Shown here: in pieces, positions 17,961-44,115 of the stretch
How positions within the stretch are numbered: the stretch's first letter is position 1
Layout of the letters: each line of letters starts with the position of its first letter
DNA from: Dryococelus australis
Lineage: Eukaryota; Arthropoda; Insecta; Phasmatodea; Phasmatidae
Direction of reading: 5' to 3'
Assembly (NCBI GenBank): GCA_029891345.1
Contig: CM056997.1
Location: forward strand, 219,126,712-219,190,711
Length of the DNA: 64,000 nt
Notes under the pieces: generated by a model
What the model was told of the DNA's origin: nothing
The model's input: the letters and a program-made list of their open reading frames with translations, nothing else
Databases searched by the model: none
Program-made: the position numbers and the translations under genes

Positions 17961-19270
17961 AAGTGAAAGAGTTGAATTTTGTTTTAAAAACCTTCAATTA
18001 GGTTTTCTGAGCTTTTGTAAATTATGACTGTTTTACCACCAAACATCACCGTGTTGAATCCAAGTAGCTACTGTAGTTGTGATCTGTTTTGCGTGATAAT
18101 ATATTTTTATTAAACGTTTGCTGGACTTTCGCTCTCACTTCTGTAGAAACTCAGGTCAGCTGGAAACGTTCTTGGAGCTATTGTGTATCACTAAGAGGTT
18201 TTGCACCTGCCTCTGAAAGGTGTTTTTGTCAGCCCACTCTCCGTTTCTTGAGTCCCCATGGTCCTATAAGTTGATCAGTGGGCCGACGGAGGTTCTCTTG
18301 ATATTCTACTGTTCCATCTCCTTTCAATTAAATTTCATTCAGATGTTTGATTATTTTCTCCATCAATTTTGTAATTATATGTCCCCTCATCCCTTCAAAG
18401 TAAGTTTTTATTCAGTTTCCTAAATGGAAATATCATGATTTAATTTATAAACATCTTTTCTCCCTCGTGAAGAGTGTAGCGAGAAATTTGTACTTTCTTT
18501 AAAGTGAGCAAACAGGCATCCTGCTACCTGAGTTTAAATACAAACCAACAGCTTACCATCACTGCTAGATATCCACTCTTTTCATTTTAGCAGGAATTTT
18601 TGTTTCACATTTTCTTTAGTAATATTAAATAGTTGATCCACTCATCATACATAAGATATTATATGACATGAGGAATTAAAAACTGTTAAAATAATAAGTC
18701 ACATTACTCTTTTTTAACACAGAAAAAATCTACTTAAAATTATCTTCTCGAAAAATTGCCTGTAAAAGCTAAATATTTACAATTACTTTACAACAAACAT
18801 CGACACTCTAAAATACCTTTTCTAACAAGCAATTTTTCAATCACCTTTTTTACTAACTAAAATAAATATATACCACAAGCATTTTTTCACTTTAAAACAA
18901 ACATATCAATAGAATTAAATTTCCAACAAACATCTTAAGAACTAATTTACCAAACTTTTTTCAAACACTTTATGTGGAAAAAGAAGTTATGTGTCAAAAA
19001 AATTTGCGATCACTATATTTACTACAACAAACATTTCCAAACATATGTAAATTTTAAAACTATTACTGTTTACTATAATGTTCCAAAATCTTCTTACATA
19101 TATTAACCAGAAAATATAACAATAACAAAAACTATGCATATATATACACAAAAAATTATTTATAAAATATTTACAAATATACTACATCAATGGGGATGTC
19201 GTCTCTTTTCTAACTATATAAATATAATATTTACAAACTTTTAAGAGGTTATAAAGACACACACTGAAGG
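17961..19270 (-). other. AT-rich terminal segment of Polinton copy 1
   Basis: Between the left inverted repeat and the polymerase unit. It is very AT-rich, with scattered AACAAACAT strings (for example near 18793, 18899, 18928 and 19024). The corresponding part of copy 2 shows the complement (ATGTTTGTTGAT). No gene was seen. Confidence 0.4.
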
Positions 19271-19276
19271 AGTTCT

Positions 19277-19282
19277 TTTATT
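19277..19282 (-). terminator. Possible polyadenylation signal downstream of polymerase
   Basis: AATAAA on the minus strand, followed within about 20 bases by a GT-rich stretch (CAGTGTGTGTC), the usual layout of a cleavage and polyadenylation site. It lies after the polymerase tail in the direction of transcription. It is a short motif in AT-rich DNA, so a chance match is possible. Confidence 0.35.
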
Positions 19283-19450
19283 GTGTCACATCCGGGGATA
19301 TATTTTCCATACACCTACACACACCAACGACTGGTTCCAAAACACACACGCACGCAGTTACCAGAGGATGTTATGGCATACTGTGGATTTCTTCTTCTTA
19401 TTATCAAGGGGAAAAGATACTGAAGAGAGTTGTATCAATACTCTTGATAC

Positions 19451-19720
19451 TTATGTTATGTCATGCCATACAGTTGGGCAAACAGGTTGTAGCAACATTG
19501 ATGGTAATGCAACAGGTGTTGCAAATAGTTGTAAATATTTGTTGATGTTGTGGGCAGTTGTAGATAGCCATGATGACAGTTGTGGAACAGGAGGTGCGTG
19601 TGGTGGTGGTAGATGGACATCATTGGTGGTGTGGTGCTGGCAGTTAGGGTACCGTGGATGGACTGTATTTATTGTGGTTCTGTAACTAATGTAGGGAGGA
19701 AATAAAAAAAAATACTTAGG
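19451..19720 (-). pseudogene. Pro/Thr/His-rich tail downstream of polymerase, Polinton copy 1
   Basis: The open segment past the polymerase C-terminal motif has the composition of a low-complexity tail (LPPPHAPPVPQ, CQHHTTND). The equivalent place in copy 2 (46900-47130, plus) encodes a similar biased segment and the DNA aligns. Whether it is a polymerase extension, a separate small protein or a transcribed trailer cannot be told here. Confidence 0.4.
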
Positions 19721-19724
19721 GATT

Positions 19725-22700
19725 ATGTAGTACCCCGAAGGTAAGGTTGATACTCCATCTGCCTCAATGTACCGCTTATCATCCATACCTGACAACACTA
19801 CCTTGGTTATGCGTTCGTTGCAGACATAATGAGCATGCAAACGGAACTGATATTGGGTCCTTAAAACCCATGTGCAATTTTCGAGGCAATCTCGATAATC
19901 CTCATACCTAAGTGATTGCACAACGTTGTGTTTTACACACTTCACCTTACGTATATATTGTTCATTCGCAAAAATGTATGCATAAAACTAAGAACGTAAA
20001 CCTACTAAGTGTGTGATAACAGGGCCATCACATTCATCTTTCATCACCCTGGTATGGCCTTTGTTCTTGCGGGGCAAATTTTGCAGGTTAACAAGCACAT
20101 AGTTGGATGTATCAAACTGAACCTTTAAATCGGGGGTAATTACTTTGTAAATGTCATCACAAGCAACAGAATACACCAGGGAATCAGTATCACAATAGAG
20201 GAGGTGTAAGGCTGGTGGAAGAAATTTTGTACATCTGAAGTGATAATTAAATTCGTAGAGGGATAATTTAGAAAGATCAAGAATTGCAACACCAGTGTGC
20301 AAAGGTTGGTTGAATGCAAAAGAACTCTTTGACATCTCGATAAGGTACAAGTCTTCATCGATAATCTTCCTTGCCTGGAATGTTGGTGATTCTATCATCT
20401 TTGCAGCCCTGTAGATCGTGTCATACCTCGATACGACTCTAATGTCCCTTTCCTAGCGGACATTCTGCAATGTTTTTCCATTAACTGAATTATTCATTCA
20501 TTAATGTAAAAACGATATTTCGAATTCGTTCACAGCCTGAGCACGTTTCGCAATATTAAATTCGATGAACGGCTCTGTCCAGGCCTTATGATCAAAGTGC
20601 AAAACGCGATGAACAGAGTCAAGTTTGGCCCCGTACATCAAATAGTGCTTCATTGTTTCCTCGCATATAACATAATTCTTCCACAGTGCAAGTGTTAAAA
20701 AAAGTTTCTCGTGTGAGTCGTTCGGGGTACGCCATTTCCTGGGGTCAGAGGCAGATCAGATAGTGCATCATGTTATTCGTCTGGGAAATACAAATCCACT
20801 TCTGCGAAAAAAACAAGTGTCACCATCATTCACCGTGTTTGAAAAATCCCATGATGAGAACCCATCAGTCTTAATCCACTCAAAATAGTAAATTGGAAGC
20901 TTGTATTGCATCATATGACTGTACAGCCTATTGGCGTCAAAATAGCATATATTTCGATTCCACACTGGGGCCATAGTCCTCACACATGTAAGTATGGTTG
21001 CCTATCACACGCCTTCATTGAGAGGGTGATACTCAATTGTGCAGGGAGTAAATTGCCTGCCAAAGTTCCCAGAGAGGCTTTGATGAACTGGAATGAATTA
21101 ATAAAACGTAACTTGAAATATTGAACCTTTCCAATGAAATCAATCCCATTGGGAATTTGTTTGGTTATACATGTGTATTTCTCAAGGGTCATTTCGATCA
21201 CTTGATTTTTACCTGGGTTTTCGATTACCACAGTTCCGTTGGGTTGTGGTATGTGTCATTCAGCCAAAGGCTTTATGAGAAGTGAGCATTATAATTCTGC
21301 AGGTTACGAAAATCAGGGACAAGTTGTATTTTTGGCAGTCTAAAGTTAAAGTTACACTTCTTAAGTGCATGACCTCTGTTTTCACCCGTCAGATGGACAT
21401 GATAGACCACAAAAGATCCGTACTGAACGGTCACTTACAAATAGGACAACATGCTTCAGCTACCAAACTAGCATAATCAGCAGGGGTATTTTTTGCATTA
21501 TAGGAACAATAACGCTGTATATTCTTGCAAACCACTTTGTAAGTTCAACTAATTTATCTACTAATTGGTACTTAATATCAGCACTCACAAACTCAAAATT
21601 GTTACATAAACTTGGATTGTATGAGCAGACCAACAAAATGCTACAAGCATATGGAATATGTTGGTTGATGATAGTTGTATTACTTATTTCATCATTAGGT
21701 AAGCAAGTGGATATGGGTTTCAGGCATCTTTCAATGTCGTAATAGGCGACGAAACCGAATATTTGCTTTAAATTCCAGTACTTGTCGTTCTCAGTAGAGA
21801 AAGTTCTGCGAACAGCCATTTGTTGATGGCAAAGAATAGTGTGACTCGCGAGTTTCTCCTCACTAACAAAGTACTGGAGGCAACAATCACTTCATCTTAC
21901 TCAGCTGACTACCAACCAGCCGGGACAAATTTATAATAGAGACAAAATGCAAATGTGCGGCATTTACACTCGTGCGAATCGCCAAAATATTCACATGTTT
22001 GTCATTTACGTACAGGAGAAATACGAATGGATACGACTACTCCACCCTTATCGCAAGTTTCGTCAATTATATTACTATTTTTGTCTACTACACATTATAC
22101 ATTGATAGAAATTGAAATATTCTCCTCGAACTTACGAATATCCTGTATTACTACAGGTGCCGACAGACCTTCAGTATTCAAAACCTCGTGAGGATTTGGA
22201 TTTGAAGTAATTCTCTCGTCATTTCATGTGGCAGGATATTATGGCATAGTGGAAACACATTCTTACCAGGTAGTTTGTATCGACGCAATCCTTCCTATCA
22301 GCATTAAATTTGTTAGTTTAGTGTGCGCAGCATCATCGGTGAATTGAGACACATGTACATCCGTGTATGTCAACACTTGCAGACTCCAGCCAGATATATG
22401 TGCACTAAACTCCTGAAGTCCGTTAGTAAGATAAGGTACAATGTCATCATCACAGATTAAACCCACATAGGATAAGTGCCGGACAGAGAGGACTTTGCTT
22501 TGAAAAGAGAATGTTTCCATAGTGCCTTCTTCTGCCATGAGGGATTTCAATTAATCACCCGCTACAGTAACTGAAACTCTAATGGGCCGGGGTGATGCCA
22601 ATACTAAATTTAATAAAGGGGCTTTACACATCGCGAAAAAAACGATAAAAATCCGCATCACTGATAAGCCTATTGTTTAAATCTGTGAATCATTTAGGCT

Positions 22701-23167
22701 ACCCACAAACAGCATAGCCAATAGTTCATATGTCAGGTCTGGCAAACGCTCCACTGGGGCTGGGGACTCGGAAAAAGAATTATTTTCTGGTTCCCTTGGC
22801 GAAATATCTCTAATTAACTTGAAAGTCGTCGGCTGTGAAATGGACAGAGTACTAACTTAATCACAAGAATTTTCAGAGTCAAATAGAATTATATTATCCA
22901 ACAAAAAATCAACCTTTTCTTGTTTGGCGTAAGCAGACATGTTTCGACCTTTTGTTGTTGATAATCTCTCCGTAAGTGAATCCGTGCTTGAATCGCTTAA
23001 GTAGAGATCATCCTCCAAAAGATTAACTCGTGTCTGCTTACGCGAAGGGACACTGTCTTGACAGCTTACTATAGACTTTCTTTCTGTCTGTGTTTCAGAA
23101 TCTCAATACCTTATGTAAAGAATTTAAGTAAACTGTCAATATGTTGCCGCTTACGGTCACTCATTTC
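19725..23167 (-). pseudogene. Family-B DNA polymerase fossil (protein-primed type), Polinton copy 1
   Basis: In Polintons this enzyme replicates the linear element. Reading towards lower coordinates, the segments show an N-terminal block (MSDRKRQHIDSLL at about 23.15 kb; SGWSLQVLTYTDVHVSQFT at 22.3-22.5 kb), exonuclease-domain blocks (FVAYYDIE; KLRFINSFQFIKASL), polymerase motif A (YFDANRLYSHMM, 20768-20983), motif C (LLYCDTDSLVYS, 19988-20398) and the C-terminal KVVLSGMDDKRYI block. The order and spacing of exonuclease, palm and thumb blocks match the Polinton/adintovirus-like polymerase group. The gene is broken in several places and is treated as a fossil. It is the last large gene of the minus-strand unit. 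The family assignment rests on these motifs and is secure. Confidence 0.9.
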
Positions 23168-23179
23168 CACTAACTAAAT

Positions 23180-24050
23180 TTCTTTTGTTTCCCCGATATA
23201 ACAGTTACAACACCACAACAATGTAATATGAAGTGCAATGTTATTCTGAAAACAGAGACAAAGAACCACACTTTGTTCACTTACCTGTAAATAGAATATG
23301 TGTTACCAACATAAACGACTACATACTTTATTATAAATATATATTTTTGAAGGAGGGACCGAAGTTCAGTTTGTTTGGGAAAGGCAACGGGTTTATACAA
23401 AACATACAGGGCATGAGGCTTTCTAAACCATCTTGGACAAGGCAAAAAGCGTGCGGCCGAAAGCTGAAAGCTTGGGGGAGCGGGCGAAAGGCAGATAGCG
23501 AGATTTCAGACAGTGCGGGACAGAGTGTAAGAAAATAAGCAGCAGTCGAAAGTTTGGCTCGCGCGTGGGGCGGGATATCTGTCTATGACATGGACAAGAC
23601 GTGTGATTGAAGCCAGTTTTATTAAACTGCTGCTAGCACCAGCACGCGACACCATCCAGAATCTACCCCATTTCCCTGCCTACTTCCATCCGCTCGACAA
23701 CCCCCTCCCCACACTAGCACTCAGCTTGCAGACCTTGCATTCTCCTGTGCACATGCGCACCAGCGGGAAAAGTTCAACCCTTCCCCTACACCCCCTCACC
23801 AATCCGACGACTTCACTTTGTGATGCGGAATCTCCATCACGCAGCTATCCTCCTCTTTACACAATGTTTCCTGATTTTACTGGTCTAATCTATCTTTCAC
23901 AACTGTTGCTTTTACAGCAAGTGGACTGTTTCCACAACAAAATATTACAGTGAATTTTAAACCCAGTTTTGAATAGCAAAAACAATTAATTAAAACTTTA
24001 CATCTGAAATGCTCTTTTTAAAAATAATGTGAATTTCACAACACCGTCCA
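23180..24050. other. Region upstream of polymerase, Polinton copy 1
   Basis: Between the polymerase start and the repeat-rich middle. The part 23350-23870 is clearly more GC-rich than the rest of the element and carries two plus-strand open frames (23233-23538 and 23585-23953) without recognisable content. It may hold the polymerase promoter or an inserted foreign segment; copy 2 has no counterpart to compare. Confidence 0.35.
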
Positions 24051-24215
24051 ATTTACTTTATACAGCAAAACAATTAATTTTACACTGTCAAAAAATAATT
24101 TACATCATTAAAGTATATATATTTTACTCTGTTAAAATATAAATAGTAGTGTACACCATCAAAGATCGTTTACACCATCAAAACATTAAGAACGATTTTC
24201 ATATTAAAATTTATT
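24051..24215 (+). repeat. Short degenerate repeats around TTTACACCATCAAA
   Basis: Strings such as TTTACACTGTCAAA, TTTACATCATTAAA, GTACACCATCAAA and TTTACACCATCAAA recur at about 20-45-base spacing. They form a weak tandem array inside the middle of Polinton copy 1. Confidence 0.45.
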
Positions 24216-24299
24216 AGTGAGGGAGTGACACACTTTGTTAATATTACTAACTAAACAAACACTCTTTAAACTAAACATTTTAGACATTCTCCAAGTAAA

Positions 24300-25570
24300 A
24301 TTTACTTAAATTTTAAAATGTTTACAAAATTACTTAGAACTACTAAATACTCAATCTGCTCACAAAGATAGAATAATAACCAACCTAGAATGATTTTCAG
24401 GAAATGTCCCCACACACTGTCACACCCACAGTTACCCAACAATTTGAAAATGAAATCTCTTAACACTACTTTCAATCTAAAAAAAAAATTATGTTCCCAA
24501 ACCACCCCATCACACACATCAAAAAACATTTAATTTGTTAGAAGTACCCAATTTCTATTAATCCATCACACAGACCTTCTTCACCACAGATATTACTCTG
24601 AACAAGCTCGAGAGCTGCAGTTATGTACCTCCTGGATACAAGAGGCATAAACAGCATAGTTCTCCCTTGTTTTAGATGTTCCAGAATTCATACTTCAAAC
24701 ACACAAGATCCCGCCCTTAAACATCTCTTACAACTATGTAAACTAACTAAATTTTAAAAAATTGCAAAATATTTCCCCCACACTCATACTCACAGTCAGG
24801 TGCCTATTAGCTTTTTCTTCAGATTATTGTGTGTATCTAACAGTGTAGAGAAGAACCGGATTCATGATATTGTCACAGCCTGCTGTCCATTATAAGGATA
24901 ATGGCAGTCATCCAGTATCTCAATCTCTACTCCAATACATCCTCTCAAATATACATCAAGAACACACTTACAATTACTTACAACAACTTTCCCCACCCTC
25001 ACACTTGCAGTTACCCGATATTTTTGAAAATGGAATCTTTTAAAACTACGTAAAATATATACATGATATGCCCAAACCACTCTCTCACACATCAAAATGT
25101 TTCAATGGTTAGTAATACTCAATGTCCATTTCATCCATCACTCAGATATCCATCGCCAAACGACACACAGAGTAGAGAATATGCCGGGTCTGTGTGCTCT
25201 CTAGACATGCTGTGCATAGCCTGGAATAGTGTCCCCTCATTTTTTCTTGCTTCATAATTCATCCTTCAAACATACATCATCCCAACCTTAAACATTTCTT
25301 AAAAATACTTACAATCTAAAAATTATATGCCCAATCCACCTCATCACACGCATCAAAAAAGCATTTCATTTGTTAGAAGTACTCAATGTCCCTTAAGACA
25401 TCGTCACAGACATCCTTCACCAAACAACGACACACAGAACGAGCTCAGGAACTGAGGTTATGCACCTCCCGGATACACGGGGCATAACTAGTGTAGTTCT
25501 CCCTTATTTCAGCTGTTTCATTATCAATACTAATCATACACTCAACATACACTTAAAAATCTTAAAACTA
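24300..25570 (+). repeat. Diverged tandem modules in the middle of Polinton copy 1
   Basis: Three modules begin near 24495, 25060 and 25325 with a block like CCCAAACCAC..CATCACACACATCAAA, then TTAGAAGTACTCAATG and a CCATCAC(T/A)CAGA block. Two of them (24590-24680 and 25435-25510) share a 'cacctcc(t/c)ggata' block. Intervening segments (from 24400 and 24960) share a CACAGTTACCC-type block and GAAAATG(G/A)AATCT. This is a decayed tandem array with a higher-order pattern. Confidence 0.6.
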
Positions 25571-25629
25571 TGTAAAAAATTAACAAGTAGCTAAATAAAC
25601 AAATATGATAAATTTCGTTCGGCTTGTTA

Positions 25630-25830
25630 CAAGTTGTAATGTTTTGCTAAGAAAATTAATTATTTGAAGCAAATTTCATTCAATATGTTAAAAGTTGGAG
25701 CAGTTCAAAGCAAATTTCATTCAATTTGTTATAAGTTGGAAAGATTCTAAGTAAATTTAATTCAAATTGTTAAAAGTTGGAACGTTTGTAAGTAAATTTA
25801 ATTCAAATTGTAAAGTCTTGTTGCTAAGTT
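25630..25830 (+). repeat. 41-bp tandem repeat array
   Basis: AAATTTCATTCAAT(A/T)TGTTA or AAATTTAATTCAAATTGTTA recurs at 25671, 25712, 25753 and 25794, an exact spacing of 41 bases, each followed by an AAGTTGGA-like block in the first three units. A weaker unit precedes them. AT-rich minisatellite inside Polinton copy 1. Confidence 0.88.
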
Positions 25831-25968
25831 GTAAAAAAATTAAAAAATATAATAACAATTTAACGATTTAAAAGAAATTTCTAAAAATTGAAACAGTTTG
25901 GTAAGAAAGTTACTAAAATGTTCTAAAAGTTTTAACAAATACTGCAAAAGAATTTTAAAAAACCCTCT

Positions 25969-26410
25969 TTTTTTTTTTTTTTTTTTTTGTAATTGTTCAC
26001 TGACATAAAGCCTAGTAGCGAAGCTGTTGGTTGTTGAAAGAGGCCTGAACCCAGATCAGACAACTCAAGGCCTGAGCGGTACCCTGCTGTGCTAGGTGAG
26101 CGCTGGGCTCTGTGCTCATGTAGGCGGCAGCACTCTCCAGCGAGTGGTAAGCTGGCAGTGGGGCTGAAGGTAGCAAGTGAGAGGTTCCCCGTCAAAGAAG
26201 ATCCGGGCAGAGAGAGCTAGGCTAGCAGCGGGCGGGCGGCCGGTTCCCCAAACATATCGACTCCATGCAGCAGCTCCTAGCAGCAGGGACCGGTTCATAG
26301 GGTGTACGATACTCTCATGCACTAGAGGGGTATTGTTGAACCCATGAAGTCAGAACAGCAAATGATGAACTGCGGGCGGGAAGCCCTATTTAGACCCCAC
26401 CACTCTCCTC
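25969..26410 (-). mobile_element. Poly(A)-tailed retroposon-like insert in Polinton copy 1
   Basis: A T run of about 20 bases (25969-25988) is the minus-strand poly(A) tail of a GC-rich segment of about 420 bases, sharply different from the AT-rich host element. Such an isolated GC-rich body with a 3' poly(A) suggests a LINE-mobilised RNA (SINE or processed transcript). No tRNA-like promoter or protein family was recognised, and no clear target duplication was found. Confidence 0.45.
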
Positions 26411-27400
26411 TCTAGCAAAATTATGTAATTGGTAATTCACTTTCAAAATACATAAACCAAACTAATTATGCCTTTTAAAAGTTTCTAAGTTAATTTTAAC
26501 CAGATTGAATGCAAATTAAAAGGATTTTACGTATTTTCTAAATTTAAGCATGTATATATTGGAGTTTAATGTGGAATATGTGTATTTATTCGGTTTTAAG
26601 CTATTATATATTAATGATGTTCTTATTTAACTGATTGCGTATATTAACAATTGTTATTCCGAAACAAACCTTTTTGCATTACGAGGTGTTTGTAAACAGA
26701 ATTTAATGTAATTTACTACGATTCAACACAGTTTCCACCCTCTCATATACATGAACAAACGAGTATCAAGCTATTGTATATATTTCAATTATGTGATTCA
26801 ATCATTATTCATCTAATGTTTTTAAGGTTTGAATCATACGTGACATAGCCGAGACTCGGGCCCAGAAACTTGTGAATATCAACCATATCTTAGCCAGGAC
26901 TCGAACTCAGAAACTAACAAATATCAACCATGCCTTATTCGGGATTGGAACCCATAGCATACTGCCTATAGTGAAATGATTACTTTATGGAGGCTGGCGA
27001 AATAATAAAATATTTTTTGTGTATTTACTGTGTGTTGTATAATATTACGATGTTTTCCGACAGACATATTTGCCAGGAGATAGTTTTATGTATCTTTAAT
27101 TGAAAAGTATTTTTTGGTGAACTAATAGTTTGTTAATTATCAGATTTATTTTTTCCTCTGCCTTTTTCATTACAACACTCGTACGTGTATAATGCAACAC
27201 AGGTTGTTAGAAACCAAACTTTTTTTTCTTATAAAATATCTCTGTTGAAAAAATTTTATCAGTTACAATTCCTCTCTTAGAAAAACAATTTCACTTTTAT
27301 ATTACAAGGGACAGGGTAAACAAACTTACGAAAGGGATTCATTTTACAACATAAATTTATTTACATAATACATACACAATTTTAACACTATCAATTATGG
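26411..27400. other. AT-rich interior of Polinton copy 1, with a 45-bp repeat
   Basis: No gene was seen. At 26840-26965 a unit of about 45 bases occurs two and a half times: a GACTCG(G/A)(G/A)C(C/T)CAGAAACT block followed by AATATCAACCAT. The rest is AT-rich without recognised content. Confidence 0.4.
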
Positions 27401-27690
27401 GTTCATCCAAAACATACAAGCAAGTACAGATTGCTCCAAAACATACACAAATAATTATAGGATGTTCCAAAAACACAATTATTTCAAAAAATGTATATAC
27501 ACGGCATTAAACAAGCAATTATAGGTTGCTCCAAAAAATTATAAACAACGTTTCAACATTAGCAAATACAGCTTGCTCCAAAACACGTATAAACAAGTAT
27601 ACGATGACACAAAAACATTTAACAAGGTATCAAATCATTTAACATAAGTCAGCACAGGTTGATTCAAAATACGTACAAATTATTTCTTTA
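27401..27690 (+). repeat. Array of degenerate GATTGCTCCAAAACA motifs
   Basis: Strings like TTGCTCCAAAACATACA, GGATGTTCCAAAAACACA, GGTTGCTCCAAAAA, GCTTGCTCCAAAACACG and GGTTGATTCAAAATACG occur six to seven times over 290 bases at irregular spacing. They lie just past the end of the small reading segment at 27775-28233 in its direction of reading. Confidence 0.6.
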
Positions 27691-27774
27691 AAAACGAATA
27701 TTTTTTCAAGTGTCGGCCACTTCTGTAAACAAAGTTTTCATGCATTTTCTTAGTATTGGATCCAGATCCCCTTC

Positions 27775-28233
27775 TTAAACTCTGATTTCAAGTAGGGAGC
27801 ATTTCTTATGCCCTGACTTTAACCTGTCTGTTTGTACACAAATGTCTTTACAATTAGGGGCATGTAAAACAATGCTTTCAACCAAGTTTCCGTATGCTTC
27901 AACATAATGTGAGGGCACATCTTCAATACTAAATGGAACAGGTGTTGTTGCAGTCATATAAAACACTGGACATTTCGAACTATTATTGCATTGAATTAGT
28001 TGATGACTCTTTTCATCTCCTTGCAGAAAATAAATTACTTTAAAATGAAAGATACTATCACAAGTCTCCGTAAATTCATGGAGTAGCCAATAAAGCATAG
28101 AAGTTATATTAGGCTTGATTAAGGCTGACATTATGGTTTCCAGATTTAAAATACGCCATGTTACGTGTCTGGTATCCAACAATCGACTCTGAAGAATTAG
28201 CAAGCAAAAATGGATGTATATTGATAAATTCAT
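27775..28233 (-). pseudogene. Unknown 152-residue segment, Polinton copy 1
   Basis: The longest open segment of the copy outside the polymerase. It starts with a hydrophobic N-terminus (IHFCLLILQSRLL) that could be a signal or membrane segment. It then carries a FTETCDSIFHFKV block and cysteines in patterns such as CNNSSKCPVFY and CKDICVQTDRLKSGHKKC, suggesting a disulphide-stabilised or metal-binding secreted-type protein. No homologous family is recognised and copy 2 has no equivalent. It is the last of the small segments in the minus-strand unit. The function is unknown. Confidence 0.45.
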
Positions 28234-28439
28234 TCTCTAATATTTCAAGTTATAATGTGTTTGAGTGCTAAATTGAATTTTTGATAATTTTATTGCTCGA
28301 TGCACGTAACATTTTGATGAATCACACCCAGTATGAACTGTGTAGCCAAACTTGTTTTTGCGATTATAATATAAAGTATTACAATCTACTCTATGTGGAG
28401 TATACTGGTTTACAATACATTTATAAGTATTGCAGTTAG

Positions 28440-28622
28440 TTAAACAGAAACAAAACTAGATGGTTTACTATGTGCTGTTGAAGATTGAGAGAAATACGTA
28501 CATTTGAAATGAATGTCTGACTCACAGAATTCCTTAACAACAATATCTGAATATGCTATAATATAAGTTACAGAATACAAACCTTTATTATTAAACACAA
28601 ACTTGCAAATCGAGGAGAACAT
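28440..28622 (-). pseudogene. Unknown small segment, Polinton copy 1
   Basis: It contains the block FCESDIHFKCTYFSQS. The plus strand of copy 2 near 45185-45235 encodes a closely similar block, so a protein was once under selection here. It follows the cysteine-module segments in the same order in both copies. No family is recognised. Confidence 0.45.
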
Positions 28623-28940
28623 GATTCTGAATTATCCACTTCACACGCATATATATTTCACATTGAGAATAAACTAATACTCCTTGTTCGAAAAAAATCA
28701 TTGCATGCTAACTTTTCACCAAAGCAAATACCGAGACGGTTATCGAAAGTGTAGCGACCAATTTTCTATATTGTTGAAAAACATGAACATGGAGAATATC
28801 ATCATACTGTTTAAAGAACACTGTTCTGTGTCCCATTTGCAGAAGTTCATATACGTCTATAGGGTTAAAGATGCTAGCTATGACTGCTGATTTAAGACTG
28901 AACGGTATCCTTTATATAAATCTTCTTTCATCACTTTTTA

Positions 28941-29210
28941 TCATTTTAAAAAGTTCTTGCTAAGACAAACTTTACAATTCCACATGCTACAGGGAGTAGT
29001 AAACTCTTTCTCACCAATGTACATAAAATGTTGCTGTTTGTTACATTGTTCTGTCCAAACTCTAATAAGAGACCAGCAACTACATTCCTTCTGCAGTACG
29101 TATTTGATTTTCTTGTAGAACATATGTTTTGTGATGTATCCACTTTGAACTTCAAATTCTAGTTGACTGTCATTACAAGGTAGCTTGATGACAGGACGTA
29201 CATTATACAA
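28941..29210 (-). pseudogene. Cysteine-module segment, Polinton copy 1 (second module)
   Basis: It shows LPCNDSQLEFEVQSG, then a KKIKYVLQKECSC block, RVWTEQCNKQQHF and MWNCKVCLSKN at the end. The counterpart in copy 2 (44401-44583, plus) keeps KKECSFCSL, VWTEQCNKKQHF and IWNCKVCLSKN. The paired C-x-C and C-x2-C spacings suggest a metal-binding or disulphide fold. No known family is recognised. Upstream, at about 29290-29400, lies the segment with TPGYRWVWFRIEDED that seems to precede it. Confidence 0.55.
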
Positions 29211-29705
29211 AGGATAAGAACTTCGCCCATTATAAATGTCGAAAACTATTAAAGTATAATAAAGACTGATTAAAGAGAAACACCAATGTCATCTCCATTG
29301 CAGATCTCTACCTGTAGTGGACTATCTTCATCTTCAATTCGAAACCACACCCACCTGTATCCTGGAGTAACACTGGCATAAGGATGAGATGAGTTGAACC
29401 TCTCCATCATAACTGAAGCTCTGGTGTACAATGCTCTCTCTTTATATACTCAGATGTTCTTCCAGTTTGTGGTAATATTAGTTCTTCAACAACAACCTTG
29501 TTATGTCTAATTTATAACCACAAACGTTGCTCTGCCATACCTCACAGTTCCGCATACCACAAGCCGATATTTTAATTAGGATTCTTCCTTGCACTTGCAT
29601 GATATGTCGTTTGAAATTACATGTTTTAATCCATATGGTGGGGCTGTCATAAGTGTCTCTAATAAGATTATATTTTATTTTTGTAAGTCCTGGTTCTTTG
29701 GTTAT

Positions 29706-29981
29706 TTATTCACTTCTAGTTTTATAACATAGGTCCCAAGAAGAATAGGTCAGTTCGCTATCGGGTTTCTTATTAAATACCGAACAGTCATCTTGTTCAT
29801 AACACAACACTCGTTCTGTATACATGTTTCCTCCGAAGCTTTGTGTAAAGTTAGAGTGAACATCTCCATTGCACATTTGGAATTGGAAGTATGTGTTGAT
29901 TAGAGACTTGAACCACAATCTCTTGTATCCTGGGGTAACACTAACTATACACCTTAGTGGGTTCGAAGGTCTCAATTTCAA
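29706..29981 (-). pseudogene. Cysteine-module segment, Polinton copy 1 (first module)
   Basis: It begins with a SVTPGYKRLWFKS block and FQFQMCNGDVHSNF, then RVLCYEQDDCSVFNKKPDSEL. The following module in the same element repeats the pattern 'TPGY.R.WFrI ... CNGD' and then 'D..LPC', so these are tandem paralogues. Copy 2 has the same pair (about 43550-43800 and 44116-44583). Function unknown. Confidence 0.55.
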
Positions 29982-30813
29982 AGTCTTACATAGGTATGAA
30001 TCTGGAACAAACCATTTTTCTCATTAATATCTTTACACATAGGTAGGATGCTGGTACGAATATTCTCTTATAGATTCGCTTTTGCATTGCGAACAGAAAT
30101 TTTTTTTCTCACAGTGAGTAGTGTTATATCGTTTTGACTATTGAATTAATACTCGAACAGTCGTGATATCCTCTGATATTTATGGCTTTCCAATGGTTAA
30201 ACTATTTAAAATTTCCTTCTTTATTTTTCCAAGTATGTTTACTGGCTAGTCTTCGAGAATTGTATTGTTTACCTATTGAAAATGGTCTTCGTAAGCTATT
30301 TTACCATAGTCCCATTTCAGGTCATGTATCTCGTAAGTCTGTTCCCGAAATATTATTTTGACTTCAGGTTTGGGAGATTTAAAGCTTAATACTTCTGAGT
30401 CATTGGCATCAGTTGCATAAGATAGTGCAGGCTCCTCAATTACAAAAGAGTTGTCTTAATCGTTTTCGAATCCCTGTGCATATCACATCATTTTCACGTT
30501 ATTTATTTTTACACGCTCAAATTATACAGTATTTACATAAAGTCTTCACTCATTTTATTTAATCGAACTCTGTGCTTGCCTCGGAAACCACTTCATCGAG
30601 TCCAGAATCGTCCATTACTACATCTGGGATAATTATTATCACTAGCAAATGCAGGCATGCTGTGTGGGCAGTCTTCACACGGGTGATATGATATTATATC
30701 CTCATCAGCTTATAAATGTTCAGGAAGGGACAGATATACTAGCTTTATTTTGTGCCCCACCAAGGAAATTATGATTTATTTCGGCAGCACTTGCAATTGA
30801 AAACAGTCTAAAC
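29982..30813 (-). other. Interior of the small-gene region, Polinton copy 1
   Basis: This contains short segments whose DNA aligns with 42690-43260 of copy 2, including a block reading PCEDCPHSMPAF (about 30670-30700) and one reading FREQTYE (about 30335). Both copies share them, so they derive from real ancestral proteins, but no family is recognised. Confidence 0.45.
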
Positions 30814-31098
30814 TCAATAACGTTTTCGCTTTCCCATATGCAGGAATCTGATTGAATACTTCAACACATTACACTTCAAAATTGTCACAGCAGTGAACTT
30901 GATGCATTGTACCTGTTGCGGGCTGATGCAGAGAGAGACATGTAATTCCTTGTAGATAATGTGTTGTAGATCTAGATGATGTAGTGGGTGCTTGGAGTTG
31001 TAGTAGATGCCTGGCATTGTAGTAGATGCCTGGCATTGTAGTAGATGTGATGGACCCCTGTCACCATTCTCGGTGTGGACGTTTGGAGAAGTAGCCAT
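30814..31098 (-). pseudogene. First small segment after the promoter, Polinton copy 1
   Basis: The ATG at 31098 lies about 80 bases after the predicted transcription start and opens a segment starting MATSPNVHTENGDRG, with a duplicated short CQASTTMPG-type stretch. The equivalent start in copy 2 (42371) is ATGTCTACAACAACC, and the DNA of the two copies aligns around it. The reading frame beyond this is not well constrained and no family is recognised. Confidence 0.45.
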
Positions 31099-31180
31099 GA
31101 TGAATGCTTAAGTCTCACTACTGTTAATACAATGCACACACATGCACACAAAGTGACCTTGGCAGTTGACGACTTAACAC

Positions 31181-31214
31181 TGAGAAAAAATTTAATTAAT
31201 TCCTCCTTATATAG
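31181..31214 (-). promoter_or_regulatory. Core promoter of the minus-strand unit, Polinton copy 1
   Basis: On the minus strand a CTATATAAGGAG TATA box is followed 32 bases downstream by TCTCAGTGTTAAG, a good match to the arthropod initiator TCAGT. The same pair, with the same downstream GTTAAGTCGTCAACTGC, is kept in copy 2 at 42236-42270. Its conservation in two diverged copies and its position ahead of the first small segment support it. Confidence 0.7.
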
Positions 31215-32844
31215 TAAATAAATTCAAGATGGCTGCCATTTTCCTTTAAATTAGCTTAAGTTTGGACTTCGGAAATAAGTTGTAATATCGTGGAATTCGA
31301 CAGATTTCAGCTTCGATAGAAGTCATTTCAAATTGTATTTGTGCTATTTCATTAATATCACAACGAAAAAAGAGTATTTTTAAATAAAATAAGTTTAAGT
31401 ATATACATTTTATGTTAGATAGTATAGTCGAAACTCTGGGCTGGGAAACTTACAGTGAAATCTACACGTGAAATACGCACAGATATGTCAAACTGTTTGA
31501 AAATGTATGTTTTCCATCACCCCTGTATTTAAAGTCATTTGGTTTTAACACGATTTTTCAAAAGGTGCAAAAACTTTTGCTTGTGTTTTGTATAAATCGA
31601 AAGATAGGTGTTTGAAATAAGGTTGGGGTGCTTTCAATGTAAAACATTTATTAAGTGAAAATATGTCTTGTAGTTAGTTGTAGTTTCAATGATTAGTTTA
31701 AATTCAAAATCAATAAGTTTGCTGGAAAATGGGATAAACTTAAAGTTTACAGGACGAAATTTCATTTTATGTAATAAAATATAAAAATTTCTTGGAATTT
31801 GATCTGGGGATTATCTATGGGATTAATGAAAATTAATTTTTCACTTCAGGGATATTAATTTCTTCGATGGGACTTTGGTAGCAAAAGTTTGTTTTTCTGT
31901 AAGTAATTTTATCCCTTGTATCTCGAAAAATAAGAGGAAGCTTCATTTCTGAACAAGTCAACGGACAGGCGAAACTGAAAGTTTGTAGGGCAGACTTTGG
32001 GGGGGGGGGGTGGAGGGGAGCTAGTCAAGCAGGGTCAGTTCAAAATTCGCTGGTCCGAGGGGGTGTTTGACAGGTGGACAGCTCTTGTGTTAGACACAAG
32101 GGCGCAGGGGTTGTCTAGCCGAAGCAGCTCTCGTCTCAGAAGAACACGCACTCTTGGCTAGGTGTTGGAGGGGACGGGGGAACGTAGCGCTAGACAGATT
32201 TTGCATATTGTGGTGCTGGATCAATAGCGGCAGACAGGAACTCTCCTTTCAGACAAAGATGCGTTTTGTTAAGGAGGGGAGATGGGGTGCAGGCAGGAGC
32301 GATGTGAACACTGCTCGCGGGTTGGCGGCATGTTAGTTTGACGAAAAGCAATGACATGGATACATCACTCTCTGCTTTGAAACACCTCTTCTGACATCTC
32401 TAGGCGCGGCGTCGTTTGGCGGAGAGTAGGCTATGACCGAGGGGTAACAGGTCGTCGATCACCGCAATATTTTGATAAGTTTTAATGTATGGGAAAAAGA
32501 TTTTTCGTGTGTTAAACCTATATAGTGTGTCCTTTATATTATAAGCATTTATCATCTCAAGTATGTTTGTGAGATTGGTCTACAAAAGTTCATAAGATTT
32601 TCAACTACCGTTTAATTAACTAGTGCCATGAATTTCACAGACTTGACGGATATTTGTGTTAACATTATCAAGATCGATGTAGTACGTCCATTATTTCAAA
32701 TAATTTTTTCTTCGAGGAAGTTTGATTTCTTGTTAAAATATATACTACATTTATATAAAGTGTTGTGGGATTATACTTAATGGGATTAAGTTCTTCTTCC
32801 CGCCATCCGAGGCTCCTTACTCTTCGATGGAAATTGTGTTAAAA
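31215..32844. other. Segment between promoter and right repeat, Polinton copy 1
   Basis: AT-rich from 31215 to 31980, then GC-richer from about 31990 to 32440, with a run of 12 G (31999-32010). The stretch near 32010-32060 aligns inversely with 41410-41460 in copy 2. No gene is recognised. Confidence 0.4.
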
Positions 32845-34426
32845 GGGAATTCTTCTTCTTCTTATGTTAGAAATATTATTTTGCAGCGGTAAACCAGTTT
32901 TCTTGATACGTCGTTAACATAATGGTGTGTGTTTAACTCCCTTGTCATTTCATTGATTTTTCATAAACTTTTAAAATTTTTCCTTCCTTTATGAATTTTT
33001 CCCGTAATTTCAAATCAGCTGTCTGTGAGATTCTGACAGCGCTCCACGTTTATAGTCAGGCTCTCGACACAAAGCTTATATGATTGCATAAGTTCTATGC
33101 TCAACTCATTCATACCTCAGACTCCACATCGAAGGGATGTGTGTTAAAATAATTTAGGTACGTGTACGAATGAGAGGGAGACATACGTGTATGTCTATTA
33201 TGCTATTGTGTCTGGTTAAAATATAATTCGTAGAGAAATAGGTTCTGTAATTTGTTTAGTGAGTCACATTTAGAGTTTTTGCCATAATTTCAACTCGGCC
33301 ACAAGCTCAACATCTATAATCGTGCATATAAGTTGGCGCACTACAGTCATTTCTTCAGCAACCTCGCAGCCAACCAGACGTGTTTAGTGTTTGTTACGTA
33401 CTTGTGTTCATTAGCTACTTAATTAATTAATTTTAAACACATATCTAATCAGACGGGGTGGATTTCATTTCACAGAAATACACACGTTAAGTTATTCATT
33501 CTACAATCTCCCTAACCCAACGGACGTATATTAAAATTATTTAAGGCACATGTACAACTCTGAGGCATCAAGTAGTGCAATTTTTATGTTAATAGGGACA
33601 TTTTTGCTTCGTTGTAACTTTTTAAATAATTTTATTTATGACACCTGGGGACTCACATAGTTGTGATCTTTAGTGAGTTAGTATTTGTTTCTTTAAGAGA
33701 CCAGGTTATTCACGTAGTTGTGTTCGTTTGGCATTTGCATTTCCGATTCGATGAGACCTTCATGTAAATTATATTGCTAGTAAACAGAACAGGGGTTAGT
33801 AGAATCATGTTTTGGATGTATTCATGTGTCTTTTCGTTTAATTGCTATTTCAAAACACACTTTTCGTGTATGTATAACTCAGTCGATATTCAAAAGCCGC
33901 CCGTGCTACACATCTCTCAGTCGCCTCTCAGACGAAATACTCCAAAAAATTAATACACATATATGTATATACACCTTCTCCAACACAGGCACACCTCAGT
34001 CAAGGGCTAGAGCTCAGAGGGTGAACATCGCTCCCCTATAAACATCCCTTCCCCAACACACCACACCTCGTACGACACCAGAGTTCCAAGGGTGAGGTCA
34101 TACCAGAGTCGCTTCCCACCTCCCAAAAATAAAGAAAATTAAAAATTTGTCCCATAGAACTCTTTTACACCAAACTACACACTCATTAAATTAAACAAAA
34201 TCCACGAAAAACATTCGATCGGATTAAGATCGGATTAATGATTAACGAAAACTATTTCATCGGATTAAAATTGGATTAACTATTTTCGATCGGATTAGGA
34301 TCGGGCTAAGGATTAACCCTATTGATGTCAATTTAATATCAAAGGGCTAATCCGATTAATAAAATTGGCAACTCCTTTGAGTTTGAGACCCCCTCCCCCT
34401 TCCCCTTCTAAACCATTTCTACTACT
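32845..34426 (-). repeat. Right terminal inverted repeat, Polinton copy 1
   Basis: Inverted partner of 16276-17960. Its tip on the minus strand is AGTAGTAG, then a G-rich stretch and TTTTATTAATCGGATTAG. It also shares blocks with the arms of copy 2, showing one family. The inner edge is approximate. Confidence 0.8.
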
Positions 34427-39013: not shown

Positions 39014-39019
39014 CCGGTG
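39014..39019 (+). other. Target duplication CCGGTG, left of Polinton copy 2
   Basis: Exact 6-base match to 50081-50086, immediately outside both ends of the element. Confidence 0.88.
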
Positions 39020-40427
39020 AGTAGTAGGTGCGCACAGGTTTCAACCCACTTTTGATTAAACGGATTAACCCTTCGATATAAAATTTATATCAAGGGCTAA
39101 TCCTTAATCTGATCTTAATCTGATCCAAAAAATGTTAATCAGATTTTAATCCGATGAATTTTTTTTCGTCAATCCTTAATCCGATCGAATTTTTTTAAAG
39201 ATTCTTATCAGATAAAATATAATAAAACTTCCATTGATTCATACAATTTATTAATTGAATTAATAATTTTAATTGAATTAATCAATCAGAACTGTTGTGG
39301 TAATTGTGTAGTTTGGTGTAATGGTATGCAAAGGGACAATTTATTTATTTTCTTTCTTTCTTTTCGTCGGTTGGGGAGCAGCTCTGGTACTTCTTTTCCT
39401 TTATAGCTATGGCGTCGTACTGAGGTGTGGCATGTTGGGGACAGGGTATATATATGTGTTGAGTTTTGTGCAAAAGTGGCATAAGTGTTTATTATTTGGG
39501 TTGGTTGTGATATTGCTCGTAGACAGTGGTGGGAGATAGGCGATTTTTGGTAATAGTAATCAAACAGAAAGAGAAAAAAGACGTATAGTTTACACACGAA
39601 AGAAATTATCGGAAATACAATTTTCAAACGAACACAACTATGTGATAACCTGGTGTCGACAAGTACAAACTCACTAAATGAGTATCCTGTATGAAATGAA
39701 TTAACGATCTACAACGAAGTAAAAATATTCCTATAAATTTAACTGCAGTATTTCTAAACACATTAACAAGGGATTTCAAACCAGGTACAAATTACATGTA
39801 CCTTACATGATTTTAAAACACATCCGTCCGCCTGAGAGACTGGTGAAAACTTTTGAAACAGAATCCACATGTAAAAATAAATAAATTTAATAATATGCAT
39901 GAAAAAGAAAACATTCAACACTCAGTGATTTTCCTTTCACTCAGGAGGTCGTTGCAGCACTGACTTGGATATACTGCTTATGTCGAGTTATAAGCTGAAT
40001 GACGTGTTGAGAGCAAACAGAAGCTGTGTGTGCGTCAGCCTGTGTTTCATTACAGACCGATGTGAATACGATTTACTTGATAAATTGATAAAAATTATGT
40101 TTATAATTCATGTACTAATATATAATTTACACTAGTTGAATAAAAAAATTAGTAATGAAATCTCACAGCACCGCTCCCAAAACACGCCGGGTCGGCTGCT
40201 ATCTCAGTGGAGCAATGACTGTAGTGTATGACATGTGGAGACTTGTAAGCGTGGCTGGCATCATCAATGAATGAGACTTCTGGTAGGCAAATACTCTGAA
40301 TACGACTCATTAAATGATTTACACACTACTCATAAGCTTTCTGAATTATATCTAGAAAAAAAGGTCTCCCTACCAAGTTACTATTATTGACGAACAATTG
40401 AATCATGTCTTACTGAACGTTATCCAA
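39020..40427 (+). repeat. Left terminal inverted repeat, Polinton copy 2
   Basis: It pairs with about 48690-50080. Shared landmarks are CCCACTTTTGATTAA, TATAAAATTTATAT, GTGTAGTTTGGTGTAA, CTATGGCGTCGTACTGAGG and, near the inner edge, AAAAGGTCTCCCTA and AATTGAATCATGTCTTACTG. A TTAATC(C/T)GAT cluster lies at 39052-39195. Confidence 0.82.
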
Positions 40428-42235
40428 ATTTTTTACGTATATTTTCCTATTGTATGAATGAATGACTTTAAACACAAATTTTTGTTGAAGTATAAGGAAA
40501 CTCGGATGGTGTGGAGTAGTTTTTAATCCTGCAAAGTGTATTCCTTTAACGGTTTATAGAAACCTTATATGTATTTTAACAAGCAATTAAAATTCCTCTA
40601 AGGAAAATTATTTTAAATAATGGAGATACTACCATGTTTCCATTACGTCTATGAAATTCACCACACTTGGTAACACAAACGCGAGTTGAAAATCATATAA
40701 ACTTTCATTGACTGATCTGAGAAAGGGGGTTTACATGATAAACATTATAAAATTATTTTAAAATAATGGACACACAATAGTGGCTAAACGAGAATTGCAG
40801 CTAACAGTCAGGCGTATGAAATGCCTACATTCTCCGAATTCTGCCAGAGCACCTGCCCCTTCGATCGTCACATGAAAACCTGCCAAACAATGCCACGACA
40901 GGTGACTAAATGCTTCATAGCAGAGAGTGATGTACGTGTGTATTTAGGGTGAGGGTTGGCATCAAACTAACATTGCGCCAGCCAGCGAGACGTGTCCACA
41001 TCGGTCATATGTGCAGCCCCTGTCCCCCCTCCGAAGACCAGACCACCTTATTGTGCGAAAAGAGAGTTTCTATCCAAGGCCACGCACCCCTGCTATCGAT
41101 CCAACACTGCACTCAGCAAAACCTATCCCTGGTAACACACCCCCTCCCCCAACCCTCAAACACCACCAGCCTAGAGTAGGTTTTTGTCCGTAACCCAGTG
41201 GTTTCTGTCCAAGGCCATGCACCCATGCTATCGATACAACACCAATGTCCGTGCAAAACCTCTACATGGACATGCACCCCCACACTCCCACCCACAACAC
41301 CTTCCACCAGCCCAGAACATGTTTTCGGCCATCTGAAGAGCTGCCTGCCTGCCTTGGCCAGGCAGCCCAGAAAACGTGTCTTTTGTCCTCCACATTGGGA
41401 ACTCTCCACCCCTTGGGCCAGCGAATTTTTAACTGACCCTGCTTGACTAACTCCCCTCTGCCCTCCTCCCGGCAAACTCTTATTTTGCTTCGACGCTGAA
41501 GCATGGCAAATCTGTTTCTCCAAACTAGAGACTGGTGTATTCCAAGCAAATTATAATGTCATTAGTCTCGTCGATCATGTTTATATCCATGAAATTAAAA
41601 TGAATTAAATCTTCCACGATATAGTAATTGCCAGATTTAACATTCCAAGAAAAACTATATATTTTAATCCAATAAACTTTACAGTTAATCCTGCAAACTT
41701 TATCCTGTTTTCTGGGAAACTTATTTAAGTATTTCCACGAAACTATGATTAATTTCATAGTAACACCATTACAAAAGATATTCTCTCTAAATCTAAATTT
41801 GTTTTATGTAATGAAAAACATGCATCTTTTGATTTAAGCAACACACTGTTTTTTTTTTTCAACCATTGAAAACTTACATTAAACATACACACGTTAAAAC
41901 CAAATGTCTTTAAATTCAGGGACATAGTAAACATACATATTAAATCTGTTATAATAATTGTGTGTATTTTTATGTGTAGATTTCTCCATAATTTTCCTAG
42001 AATGCGCCAAGAATTTCGACCCTACTCTCTACCTTAAAATGTGTATATTAGAACTTATATTACAAAGAAATACTACTTTTTCGATGTGGTTTTAATGAAA
42101 TAGCATTAATCCAGGCTGAAATGATTGCTATCGAATCTGAAATAAGTCAAATTCATTTATATTTATTCTTATTTTCCTAAAAGTCCAAATTTAACAAAAT
42201 TTAAAGGAAATCGACAGCCATTTGGAATCCATTTA
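40428..42235. other. Segment between left repeat and promoter, Polinton copy 2
   Basis: No gene is recognised. At 41066-41335 a C-rich unit of 135 bases occurs twice in tandem: GTTTCT(A/G)TCCAAGGCCA begins at 41066 and 41201, followed by CGCACCC-like and TGCTATCGAT blocks. Frames through it on both strands reflect composition. The part 41410-41460 aligns inversely with copy 1 near 32010-32060. Confidence 0.5.
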
Positions 42236-42270
42236 CTATATAAGGAGCGATAATTTAATTTTTTCTCACT
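42236..42270 (+). promoter_or_regulatory. Core promoter of the plus-strand unit, Polinton copy 2
   Basis: CTATATAAGGAG at 42236 and the initiator-like TCTCACTGTTAAG with its A at 42268, 31 bases from the first T of the TATA box. The sequence after it (GTTAAGTCGTCAACTGC) is the same as in copy 1. Typical arthropod TATA-initiator spacing. Confidence 0.7.
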
Positions 42271-42370
42271 GTTAAGTCGTCAACTGCAAGGGTCACTTCA
42301 AGTACATGCATGTGTGTGAATTGCATTAGCAGTAGCGAGACTTAGGTGTCTACACAGAGAACGACACTAG

Positions 42371-42683
42371 ATGTCTACAACAACCAGAGGCATCTACATC
42401 AAGAACGATGACAGGCAACAATCAGGTCTACAACAACGCCAAGTGTTTACTACAAATCCAGACACTCATTACATCATCTAGATCAACAACACATTATATA
42501 CAGGGGATTACATATCTGCATCAGCCCACAACAGGTACAATGCATCAAGGTCACTGCGGTGATAATTGTGATGCGGAATGTGTTGAAGTATTCATATGGG
42601 AATGCAAAAACTTTATTCAGTTTAGATTGCTCTCAACTGCGAGTGCTGCCGAAATAATTTATCATTTCTTTTGTGGGGTATGA
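42371..42683 (+). pseudogene. First small segment after the promoter, Polinton copy 2
   Basis: It starts near ATGTCTACAACAACC, the position equivalent to 31098 in copy 1. The DNA of the two copies aligns through the region (for example CATTATA(T/C)ACA..GGAATTACAT and ACAACAGGTACAATGCATCA). The ancestral reading frame is not certain and no family is recognised. Confidence 0.4.
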
Positions 42684-44110: not shown

Positions 44111-44115
44111 TTACA

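What the first reader, a model, noticed from the sequence alone, without database searches (positions are those of the whole stretch)
27775..31098. Small unrecognised gene set instead of the usual Polinton capsid and integrase genes
Between promoter and polymerase both copies carry several short segments with conserved cysteine blocks (QMCNGD, VWTEQCNK, WNCKVCLSKN, PCEDCPH) that fit none of the standard Polinton genes I know. No retroviral-type integrase, FtsK/HerA ATPase, adenain-like protease or jelly-roll capsid block was visible. The family may depend on others for mobility, or may be a lineage with a different gene set.
Basis: partly seen in the sequence, partly recalled or inferred. Interest (0 to 1): 0.74.

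Follow-up and report, generated by a model that had tools for sequence, protein, structure and literature searches.

The report
Two decayed Maverick/Polinton elements, reduced genes
Two old, broken copies of a virus-like jumping element (a Maverick/Polinton) lie in opposite orientation in this genome; between their ends only a polymerase and a few genes of unknown kind can be read, and whether the usual shell and integration genes were truly missing from the living element cannot be settled from these two fossils.

Summary
The segments are real and lie in two inverted elements, A (16276-34426) and B (39020-50080). Both have 1.4-1.7 kb inverted terminal repeats (arms 18-19% diverged). Three of four ends read AGTAGTAG, the published (AGT)2 Maverick end motif; the fourth has one change. 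B has a perfect 6-bp target duplication (CCGGTG), A a degraded one (4/6). Downstream on the same strand lies a polymerase region with an endonuclease-VII-like motif before PolB motifs, as in insect Mavericks. These are fossil Mavericks/Polintons.

The "several short segments" are gene0 (PCEDCPH; third-codon-position excess, p=1.7e-8), two tandem, diverged copies of one ~180-aa domain (QMCNGD; VWTEQCNK/WNCKVC), and a further frame (27778-28455, one stop).

No Polinton integrase, ATPase, protease or capsid family was seen among 209 scanned pieces. But the polymerase itself reaches only E=0.068, so this absence weighs little. The 23.3-27.7 kb middle looks non-coding. The ends imply a Maverick-type integrase; whether it was encoded here and lost, or supplied in trans, is open. 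No relatives were found in the collections searched, and the genome search did not complete.

The parts
16276..34426 (-). Element A, whole; genes on the minus strand
   Evidence: TIR arms and A-B homology; ends AGTAGTAGG...CTACTACT
16276..17954 (+). Element A, left terminal inverted repeat
   Evidence: 16283-17954 to 34398-32855, 74%; 286 of 1535 aligned sites differ, 18.6%
32855..34426 (-). Element A, right terminal inverted repeat
16270..16275 (.). Flank left of A, GCCGCT; right flank 34427-34432 GCCTGT: degraded candidate 6-bp target duplication, 4 of 6
39020..50080 (+). Element B, whole; genes on the plus strand
39020..40468 (+). Element B, left terminal inverted repeat
   Evidence: 39021-40468 to 50079-48649, 77%; 252 of 1387 sites differ, 18.2%
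48649..50080 (-). Element B, right terminal inverted repeat
39014..39019 (.). Target duplication CCGGTG, left of B
50081..50086 (.). Target duplication CCGGTG, right of B
30276..31107 (-). gene0 of A in broken pieces (PCEDCPH block at 30596-30709)
   Evidence: pieces match B; codon-position signal over B 42593-43230; not low in stops in A
42412..43224 (+). gene0 of B in broken pieces
29481..30020 (-). Tandem unit 1 of A (QMCNGD)
43539..43986 (+). Tandem unit 1 of B
28944..29449 (-). Tandem unit 2 of A (VWTEQCNK, WNCKVCLSKN)
44038..44580 (+). Tandem unit 2 of B
28443..28911 (-). Two further pieces conserved in B, no relation to the units found
   Evidence: profiles p3, p4; no codon-position signal, p=0.63
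44613..45232 (+). Counterpart in B of the two further pieces
27778..28455 (-). gene3 of A: 153-aa and 72-aa pieces in one frame with one stop between; its place is deleted in B
   Evidence: one stop in 600 bp, none of 200 shuffles as low; pieces
23300..27700 (.). A only: non-coding-looking middle with direct repeats and a T run
   Evidence: no low-stop frame on the minus strand; repeats
19454..23102 (-). PolB region of A in broken pieces: endonuclease-VII-like motif at 21401, motif A at 20938, motif C at 20197
   Evidence: Pfam DNA_pol_B_2 E=0.068, below its cut-off; PHROG endonuclease VII E=0.22
45320..46672 (+). PolB remainder of B: motif A at 45683, motif C at 46397; N-terminal part missing

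Best explanation
Two fossil copies of a Maverick/Polinton element that had its own family B DNA polymerase (protein-primed in the known relatives) and long inverted repeats, and that was inserted by a Maverick-type integrase (6-bp duplication, AGTAGT ends). Upstream of the polymerase, on the same strand, stand gene0, a gene or gene pair made of two tandem copies of a ~180-aa two-part domain (a first half predicted beta-rich at low confidence and a cysteine-containing second half), and gene3. The most likely reading is that these are the poorly conserved, unnamed ORFs of an otherwise ordinary Maverick, and that the standard genes were lost by deletion or are too decayed to recognise. Shown: two copies, ends, target duplication of B, order of the pieces, tandem duplication. 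Inferred: priming mode, integrase action, loss of the standard genes. Not known: what the tandem domain does; a role in the particle or in contact with the host is the guess I would make first.
For: Ends and 6-bp duplication of B match hallmarks used for vertebrate Mavericks, (AGT)2//(ACT)2 ends and 6-bp TSDs (PMC8097293, passages). TIR arms. PolB motifs A and C in both copies and an endonuclease-VII-like motif in A, in the expected order, with weak but consistent library matches; published insect Maverick PolBs carry a recombination endonuclease VII region, found there at E=0.02 and 0.32, besides the PolB2 domain (PMC5803895). Layout: Sf Maverick 1 has eight small tandem ORFs and the large PolB ORF on the same strand, and four of its nine ORFs have no recognised domain, as here. 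Deletions are demonstrable: B has about 270 bases where A has 7.4 kb, and B's piece 45320-45592, which I read as PolB, has no match among A's pieces in the rows shown. Open-frame test: low-stop minus-strand frames at 19.25-20.75, 21.95-23.0, 27.8-28.4 and 28.7-30.2 kb in A.
Against: No trace of a standard gene besides PolB: no Walker A and no (S/T/C)DxGxEF pattern in six frames of A or B, and no Polinton-type family other than DNA_pol_B_2 in the shown Pfam rows (25 of 30 for A, 20 of 20 for B). A and B have very different repeat arms (41-44% against 18-19% within each), yet share the order gene0-unit1-unit2-PolB, which fits a lasting gene set. The middle of A shows no open frame. A domain duplicated in tandem is not something I know from Mavericks (recall).
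Confidence: 0.6

Rival explanations
1. A distinct Maverick lineage with a reduced gene set: it replicates itself with its own PolB but has no integrase or capsid, and uses those of a complete Maverick in the same cell (a polymerase-bearing satellite).
For: Two copies with strongly different arms share the same reduced order; no standard gene seen besides PolB; ends and 6-bp duplication show that a Maverick-type integrase acted on it; nine Polintons without a major capsid gene also lacked protease and ATPase genes (PMC4028283, passage).
Against: The interior of A and B differs by only 22% (B 42400-47300), little more than the 18-19% seen between arms, so the interiors may share a recent, already deleted ancestor or have been exchanged; then the two copies are not independent witnesses. 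The scan has little power.
Confidence: 0.25
2. A Maverick lineage with a full but diverged virion gene set, in which the tandem units are capsid or fibre proteins unlike the known ones.
For: The first half of the unit is predicted as all beta (8 strands, mean pLDDT 58.5), and is duplicated in tandem.
Against: The model is of low confidence, no fold comparison could be run, no credible sequence match in solved structures (best E=0.99, none), and no ATPase or protease seen.
Confidence: 0.1
3. The segments are chance or non-coding conservation, not genes.
For: No codon-position signal between A and B in units 1 and 2 (p=0.6) or the two following pieces (p=0.63); gene0 windows of A not low in stops.
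Against: gene0 has p=1.7e-8; one stop in 600 bp in gene3, 0 of 200 shuffles as low; unit 1 and unit 2 align in the sense frame.
Confidence: 0.05

Closest known systems
Sf Maverick 1 (Spodoptera frugiperda; PMC5803895, passages and section 11, part 1 of 2, seen)
   Same: Small tandem ORFs and PolB on the same strand; PolB with an endonuclease-VII-like region besides the PolB2 domain; several ORFs without a recognised domain.
   Different: Sf Maverick 1 has recognised ATPase, integrase, protease and CAP ORFs (eight small ORFs, 1,944 aa by the lengths in its Table 2). Here about 3.3 kb upstream of the non-coding middle, none recognised; no sequence comparison was possible.
Vertebrate Mavericks with (AGT)2//(ACT)2 ends (PMC8097293, passages seen)
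   Same: AGTAGT ends, inverted repeats, 6-bp target duplication.
   Different: Intact ones hold eight (seven in Xenopus tropicalis) conserved ORFs.
Polintons without major capsid, protease and ATPase genes (PMC4028283, passages seen)
   Same: PolB element without recognised virion genes.
   Different: Described there as concerted loss; I saw no statement on the integrase of those nine and could not compare sequences.
Bidnaviruses (PMC4061559, passages seen)
   Same: Maverick-derived PolB and inverted repeats; a zinc-finger protein (NS3).
   Different: Carry parvovirus-type helicase and capsid, not recognised here (one chance-level Pfam row, HBoV_NS1-like_N E=0.067); the 6-bp duplication and AGTAGT ends point to Mavericks.

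Membership tests
Maverick/Polinton | Long terminal inverted repeats | tested here: met
   1.4-1.7 kb arms in A and B
Maverick/Polinton | (AG)3 or (AGT)2 end motif | tested here: met
   AGTAGTAG at three of the four ends, one substitution in the first base at the fourth (motif from PMC8097293)
Maverick/Polinton | 6-bp target site duplication | tested here: met
   Perfect in B (CCGGTG); 4 of 6 in A
Maverick/Polinton | Family B DNA polymerase | tested here: met
   Motif C once per copy, motif A in both, in order with an endonuclease-VII-like motif in A; Pfam DNA_pol_B_2 only E=0.068, below its cut-off. The loose motif A pattern also matched three other places in A by chance. The assignment leans on motif reading from recall
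Maverick/Polinton | Protein priming of that polymerase | not testable with these tools
   Inferred from the family only
Maverick/Polinton | Retroviral-type (rve) integrase | tested here: inconclusive
   None in the shown Pfam rows and no (S/T/C)DxGxEF pattern; a looser first-aspartate pattern matched three places (two in arms of A, one antisense in B), taken as chance. The test could miss it, since PolB is itself barely found
Maverick/Polinton | FtsK/HerA-type packaging ATPase | tested here: inconclusive
   No Walker A pattern in six frames of either copy; copies decayed and deleted
Maverick/Polinton | Adenovirus-type cysteine protease | tested here: inconclusive
   No such Pfam row; a loose pattern matched 10 places in A and 1 in B and says nothing; published insect PRO reaches only E=6.1 and 0.58 even when intact
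Maverick/Polinton | Major (double jelly-roll) and minor capsid proteins | tested here: inconclusive
   No Polinton-type capsid row (an unrelated CRPV_capsid row at E=0.073 is chance level); half 1 of the unit is predicted all-beta at low confidence
Bidnaviridae | Parvovirus-type SF3 helicase and capsid | tested here: inconclusive
   Only a chance-level row, HBoV_NS1-like_N E=0.067; same low power

The most novel reading that the evidence does not exclude
A lineage of Mavericks that kept only replication (PolB, inverted repeats) plus a private set of genes built on a tandemly duplicated two-part domain, and that moves as a satellite: it copies its own DNA but borrows the integrase, and perhaps the particle, of complete Mavericks.
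Probability: 0.2. Interest if true: 0.7.

Novelty: new member of a known kind. Interest (0 to 1): 0.36.

Why it matters
If the reduced gene set is real, it would be a PolB-bearing satellite of Mavericks, the reverse of the usual non-autonomous transposon (which lacks all enzymes), and would make the split between replication, integration and packaging in Mavericks testable. If it is only decay, it is one more pair of broken Mavericks with a tandem-duplicated ORF that better copies may explain.

Tried and rejected
Pfam on separate pieces (10 pieces each; 41, 42: 127 of 138 and 82 of 106): matches at chance level. At E up to 0.3 at most about 38 and 25 chance matches are expected (the filters drop many above 0.1); 30 and 20 families were seen, best 0.0048 and 0.0012. 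Five of the 30 for A were not shown. The only Polinton-type family shown is DNA_pol_B_2 at 0.068. Viral-sounding rows (HBoV_NS1-like_N 0.067, CRPV_capsid 0.073 in A) and DDE_Tnp_1_7 on 28240-28455 (0.018) were dismissed as chance for this reason.

PHROGs on ten polymerase-region pieces: two weak matches, endonuclease VII E=0.22 on 21276-21434 and an unknown family at 0.25.

Solved structures by sequence: single pieces none; profiles A5, A6, A7, A1 no credible match (best E=0.96, an unrelated peroxiredoxin on A1).

Relatives: viral contigs with A1, A2: none confirmed of 80 and 600 pattern stretches. A motif pattern gave one contig, L001, whose ORFs look to me like those of a phage; dropped. A second pattern gave none. 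Genome contigs with A2 only: none of 41. phages by tblastn with one PolB piece: none. These collections are of viral contigs, prokaryotes and phages, so the absence says little.

Whether 23.3-27.7 kb is a discrete insertion: no exact 12-bp inverted repeat between 22900-24500 and 25500-28400, and only an 11-bp AT-rich direct repeat. Its origin stays open.

Structure: unit 2 second half, mean pLDDT 50.9; first half 58.5. Too low to interpret beyond 'beta-rich'. Rfam on 16000-51000: nothing.

A similarity of the unit's NGD stretch to strands of Maverick capsid-type proteins occurred to me from recall; I could not test it and give it no weight.

Papers: search listings. One search (six spellings of non-autonomous or mini Polinton/Maverick) found 0 papers; this says only that those phrases are not in that library. 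Passages only were also seen of PMC9683012, PMC6431247, PMC2836005, PMC6035795 and PMC11071296, not used as evidence.
Full report
Setting. The window holds no long prokaryote-type genes (24 ORFs of 100 aa or more in 64 kb, the longest 357 aa) and reads as eukaryotic DNA with decayed mobile elements.

Two elements. A gapped self-comparison shows two structures, each bounded by long inverted repeats: A with arms 16283-17954 and 32855-34398, and B with arms 39021-40468 and 48649-50079. The interiors match each other in inverted orientation: A 28696-32062 with B 44826-41409 (72%), A 17932-21016 with B 48676-45603 (70%), A 28379-28697 with B 45336-45013 (77%) and A 32143-32845 with B 41184-40466 (62%). 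B has about 270 bases where A has about 7.4 kb (21016-28379).

Ends. Following the arms outward, three of the four ends read AGTAGTAG and the fourth differs in its first base. B is flanked by CCGGTG on both sides. A is flanked by GCCGCT and GCCTGT, which agree in four of six positions. A study of vertebrate Mavericks (PMC8097293, passages seen) used the end motifs (AG)3 and (AGT)2 and perfect 6-bp duplications to define elements. This is the strongest evidence for the family, and it does not depend on reading decayed protein.

Polymerase. The minus strand of A holds, in order, an endonuclease-VII-like motif (21401), a PolB motif A (20938) and a motif C (20197); B holds motifs A (45683) and C (46397) (motif names and patterns recalled; the loose motif A pattern also matched three other places in A). 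Library support is weak: DNA_pol_B_2 E=0.068 on 20771-21001 and PHROG endonuclease VII E=0.22 on 21276-21434. The combination matters because insect Maverick PolBs are annotated with a recombination endonuclease VII region, itself only at E=0.02 and 0.32, and a PolB2 domain (PMC5803895, section 11, part 1 of 2). [quoted passage not shown] I did not test that here. The A-B codon-position excess in PolB is modest (37/197, 60/197, 44/196; p=0.021), at the position expected for the frame.

The segments of the finding. Reading the open pieces, the order in transcription direction is gene0 (A 31107-30276), unit 1 (30020-29481), unit 2 (29449-28944), two further conserved pieces (28911-28443), gene3 (28455-27778, A only), then PolB. 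gene0 has a clear signature of past selection on protein (p=1.7e-8), although its windows in A are not low in stops (p=0.73 and 0.36). Units 1 and 2 are diverged copies of one domain (with a profile of unit 2 alone, 3.7e-6 and 5.1e-6 for the first half, 3.5e-4, 4.5e-3 and 0.23 for the second). In one search the best match was in sense frames in three of four pairings (1.1e-6, 3.1e-6, 7.2e-7); in the fourth (unit 1 of A with unit 2 of B) an antisense match of 16 residues (7e-6) beat the best sense match (3.1e-5). The A-B comparison of the units gives no codon-position signal (p=0.6), which I count against the coding claim. Open-frame tests against shuffles (34 windows, minus strand) give p=0.02-0.04 in 28.7-30.2 kb and 0 of 200 in 27.8-28.4 kb; with 34 windows the first is weak and the second is firm.

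The middle. On the minus strand 23.3-27.5 kb has no frame as open as the genes: over the nine windows from 23300 to 27499 p for minimum stops lies between 0.07 and 0.95, and for the longest run between 0.03 and 0.97. It contains direct repeats (24359-25597, 66-74%) and a run of T near 25970. It is either an insertion or a non-coding spacer; no boundary signature was found.

Missing genes. 127 of 138 pieces of 45 aa or more from A and 82 of 106 of 42 aa or more from B (those in the arms left out) were scanned against Pfam. No integrase, packaging ATPase, C5 protease or Polinton-type capsid family is among the 25 of 30 families shown for A or the 20 for B; two virus-named rows in A (HBoV_NS1-like_N 0.067, CRPV_capsid 0.073) are at chance level. 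Pattern search of six frames found no Walker A and no (S/T/C)DxGxEF in either copy; loose protease and first-aspartate patterns matched 11 and 3 places and say nothing. Power is low: insect Maverick PolB gives 2e-14 and 6e-17 when intact, and the integrase 4e-12 and 6e-16 (by CDD). Here PolB is down to 0.068, so an integrase of the same age could be invisible. The published PRO and ATP ORFs are weakly recognised even when intact (E=0.58 and 6.1; 1e-3 and 2.3).

Age and mosaic. The arms differ by 18.6% (A) and 18.2% (B), so both insertions are about equally old. Arms of A against arms of B differ by 41-44%, subterminal regions by 33-35%, the interior by 22%. The interior is thus little more diverged than decay alone gives, while the arms are far apart. 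Unit 2's second half is at 12.8% (37/290), below the arms' rate (p=0.006, one of many regions tested). Exchange of interiors between element lines, or faster change of the arms, would explain this; it also means that the shared gene order of A and B is not proof of a long-lived reduced gene set.

Mechanism, most likely. The element was copied as linear DNA by its own PolB from its inverted-repeat ends (inferred from the family) and inserted with a 6-bp stagger by a Maverick-type integrase (inferred from the ends and duplication). The integrase was either lost from these copies or supplied in trans. The tandem units and gene0 are accessory or particle genes of unknown function. Low-confidence models show the first half of the unit as beta-rich and the second as mixed.

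Verdict. An ordinary kind of element (fossil Mavericks) with an interesting but unproven point (reduced gene set, tandem-duplicated domain). The genome search that would settle it did not complete (19 attempts).

Noticed in passing
56672-57073 (-): Pif1 helicase 2B domain, E=2e-11, as in Helitron-type elements (recalled); not followed further.
   Followed up: no
54001-56000: A stretch of 51% GC where the other 2-kb bins have 31-42%, with a 357-aa open frame (54512-55582, +) that matched no Pfam family at E up to 0.1.
   Followed up: partly
58992-59189: A palindrome of about 200 bp (93%).
   Followed up: no
4956-5386, 15311-15744, 38545-38958: Three copies of a ~420-bp repeat at 66-67%, one ending about 60 bp left of element B and one about 530 bp left of element A.
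   Followed up: no
A 16276-34426 and B 39020-50080: Repeat arms of A and B differ by 41-44% while the interiors differ by 22%: possible exchange of interiors between element lines.
   Followed up: partly
24359-25597: Direct repeats of about 0.3-0.4 kb at 66-74% inside the non-coding middle of A, with strong C over G excess on the + strand (GC skew -0.295 in 24001-26000).
   Followed up: partly
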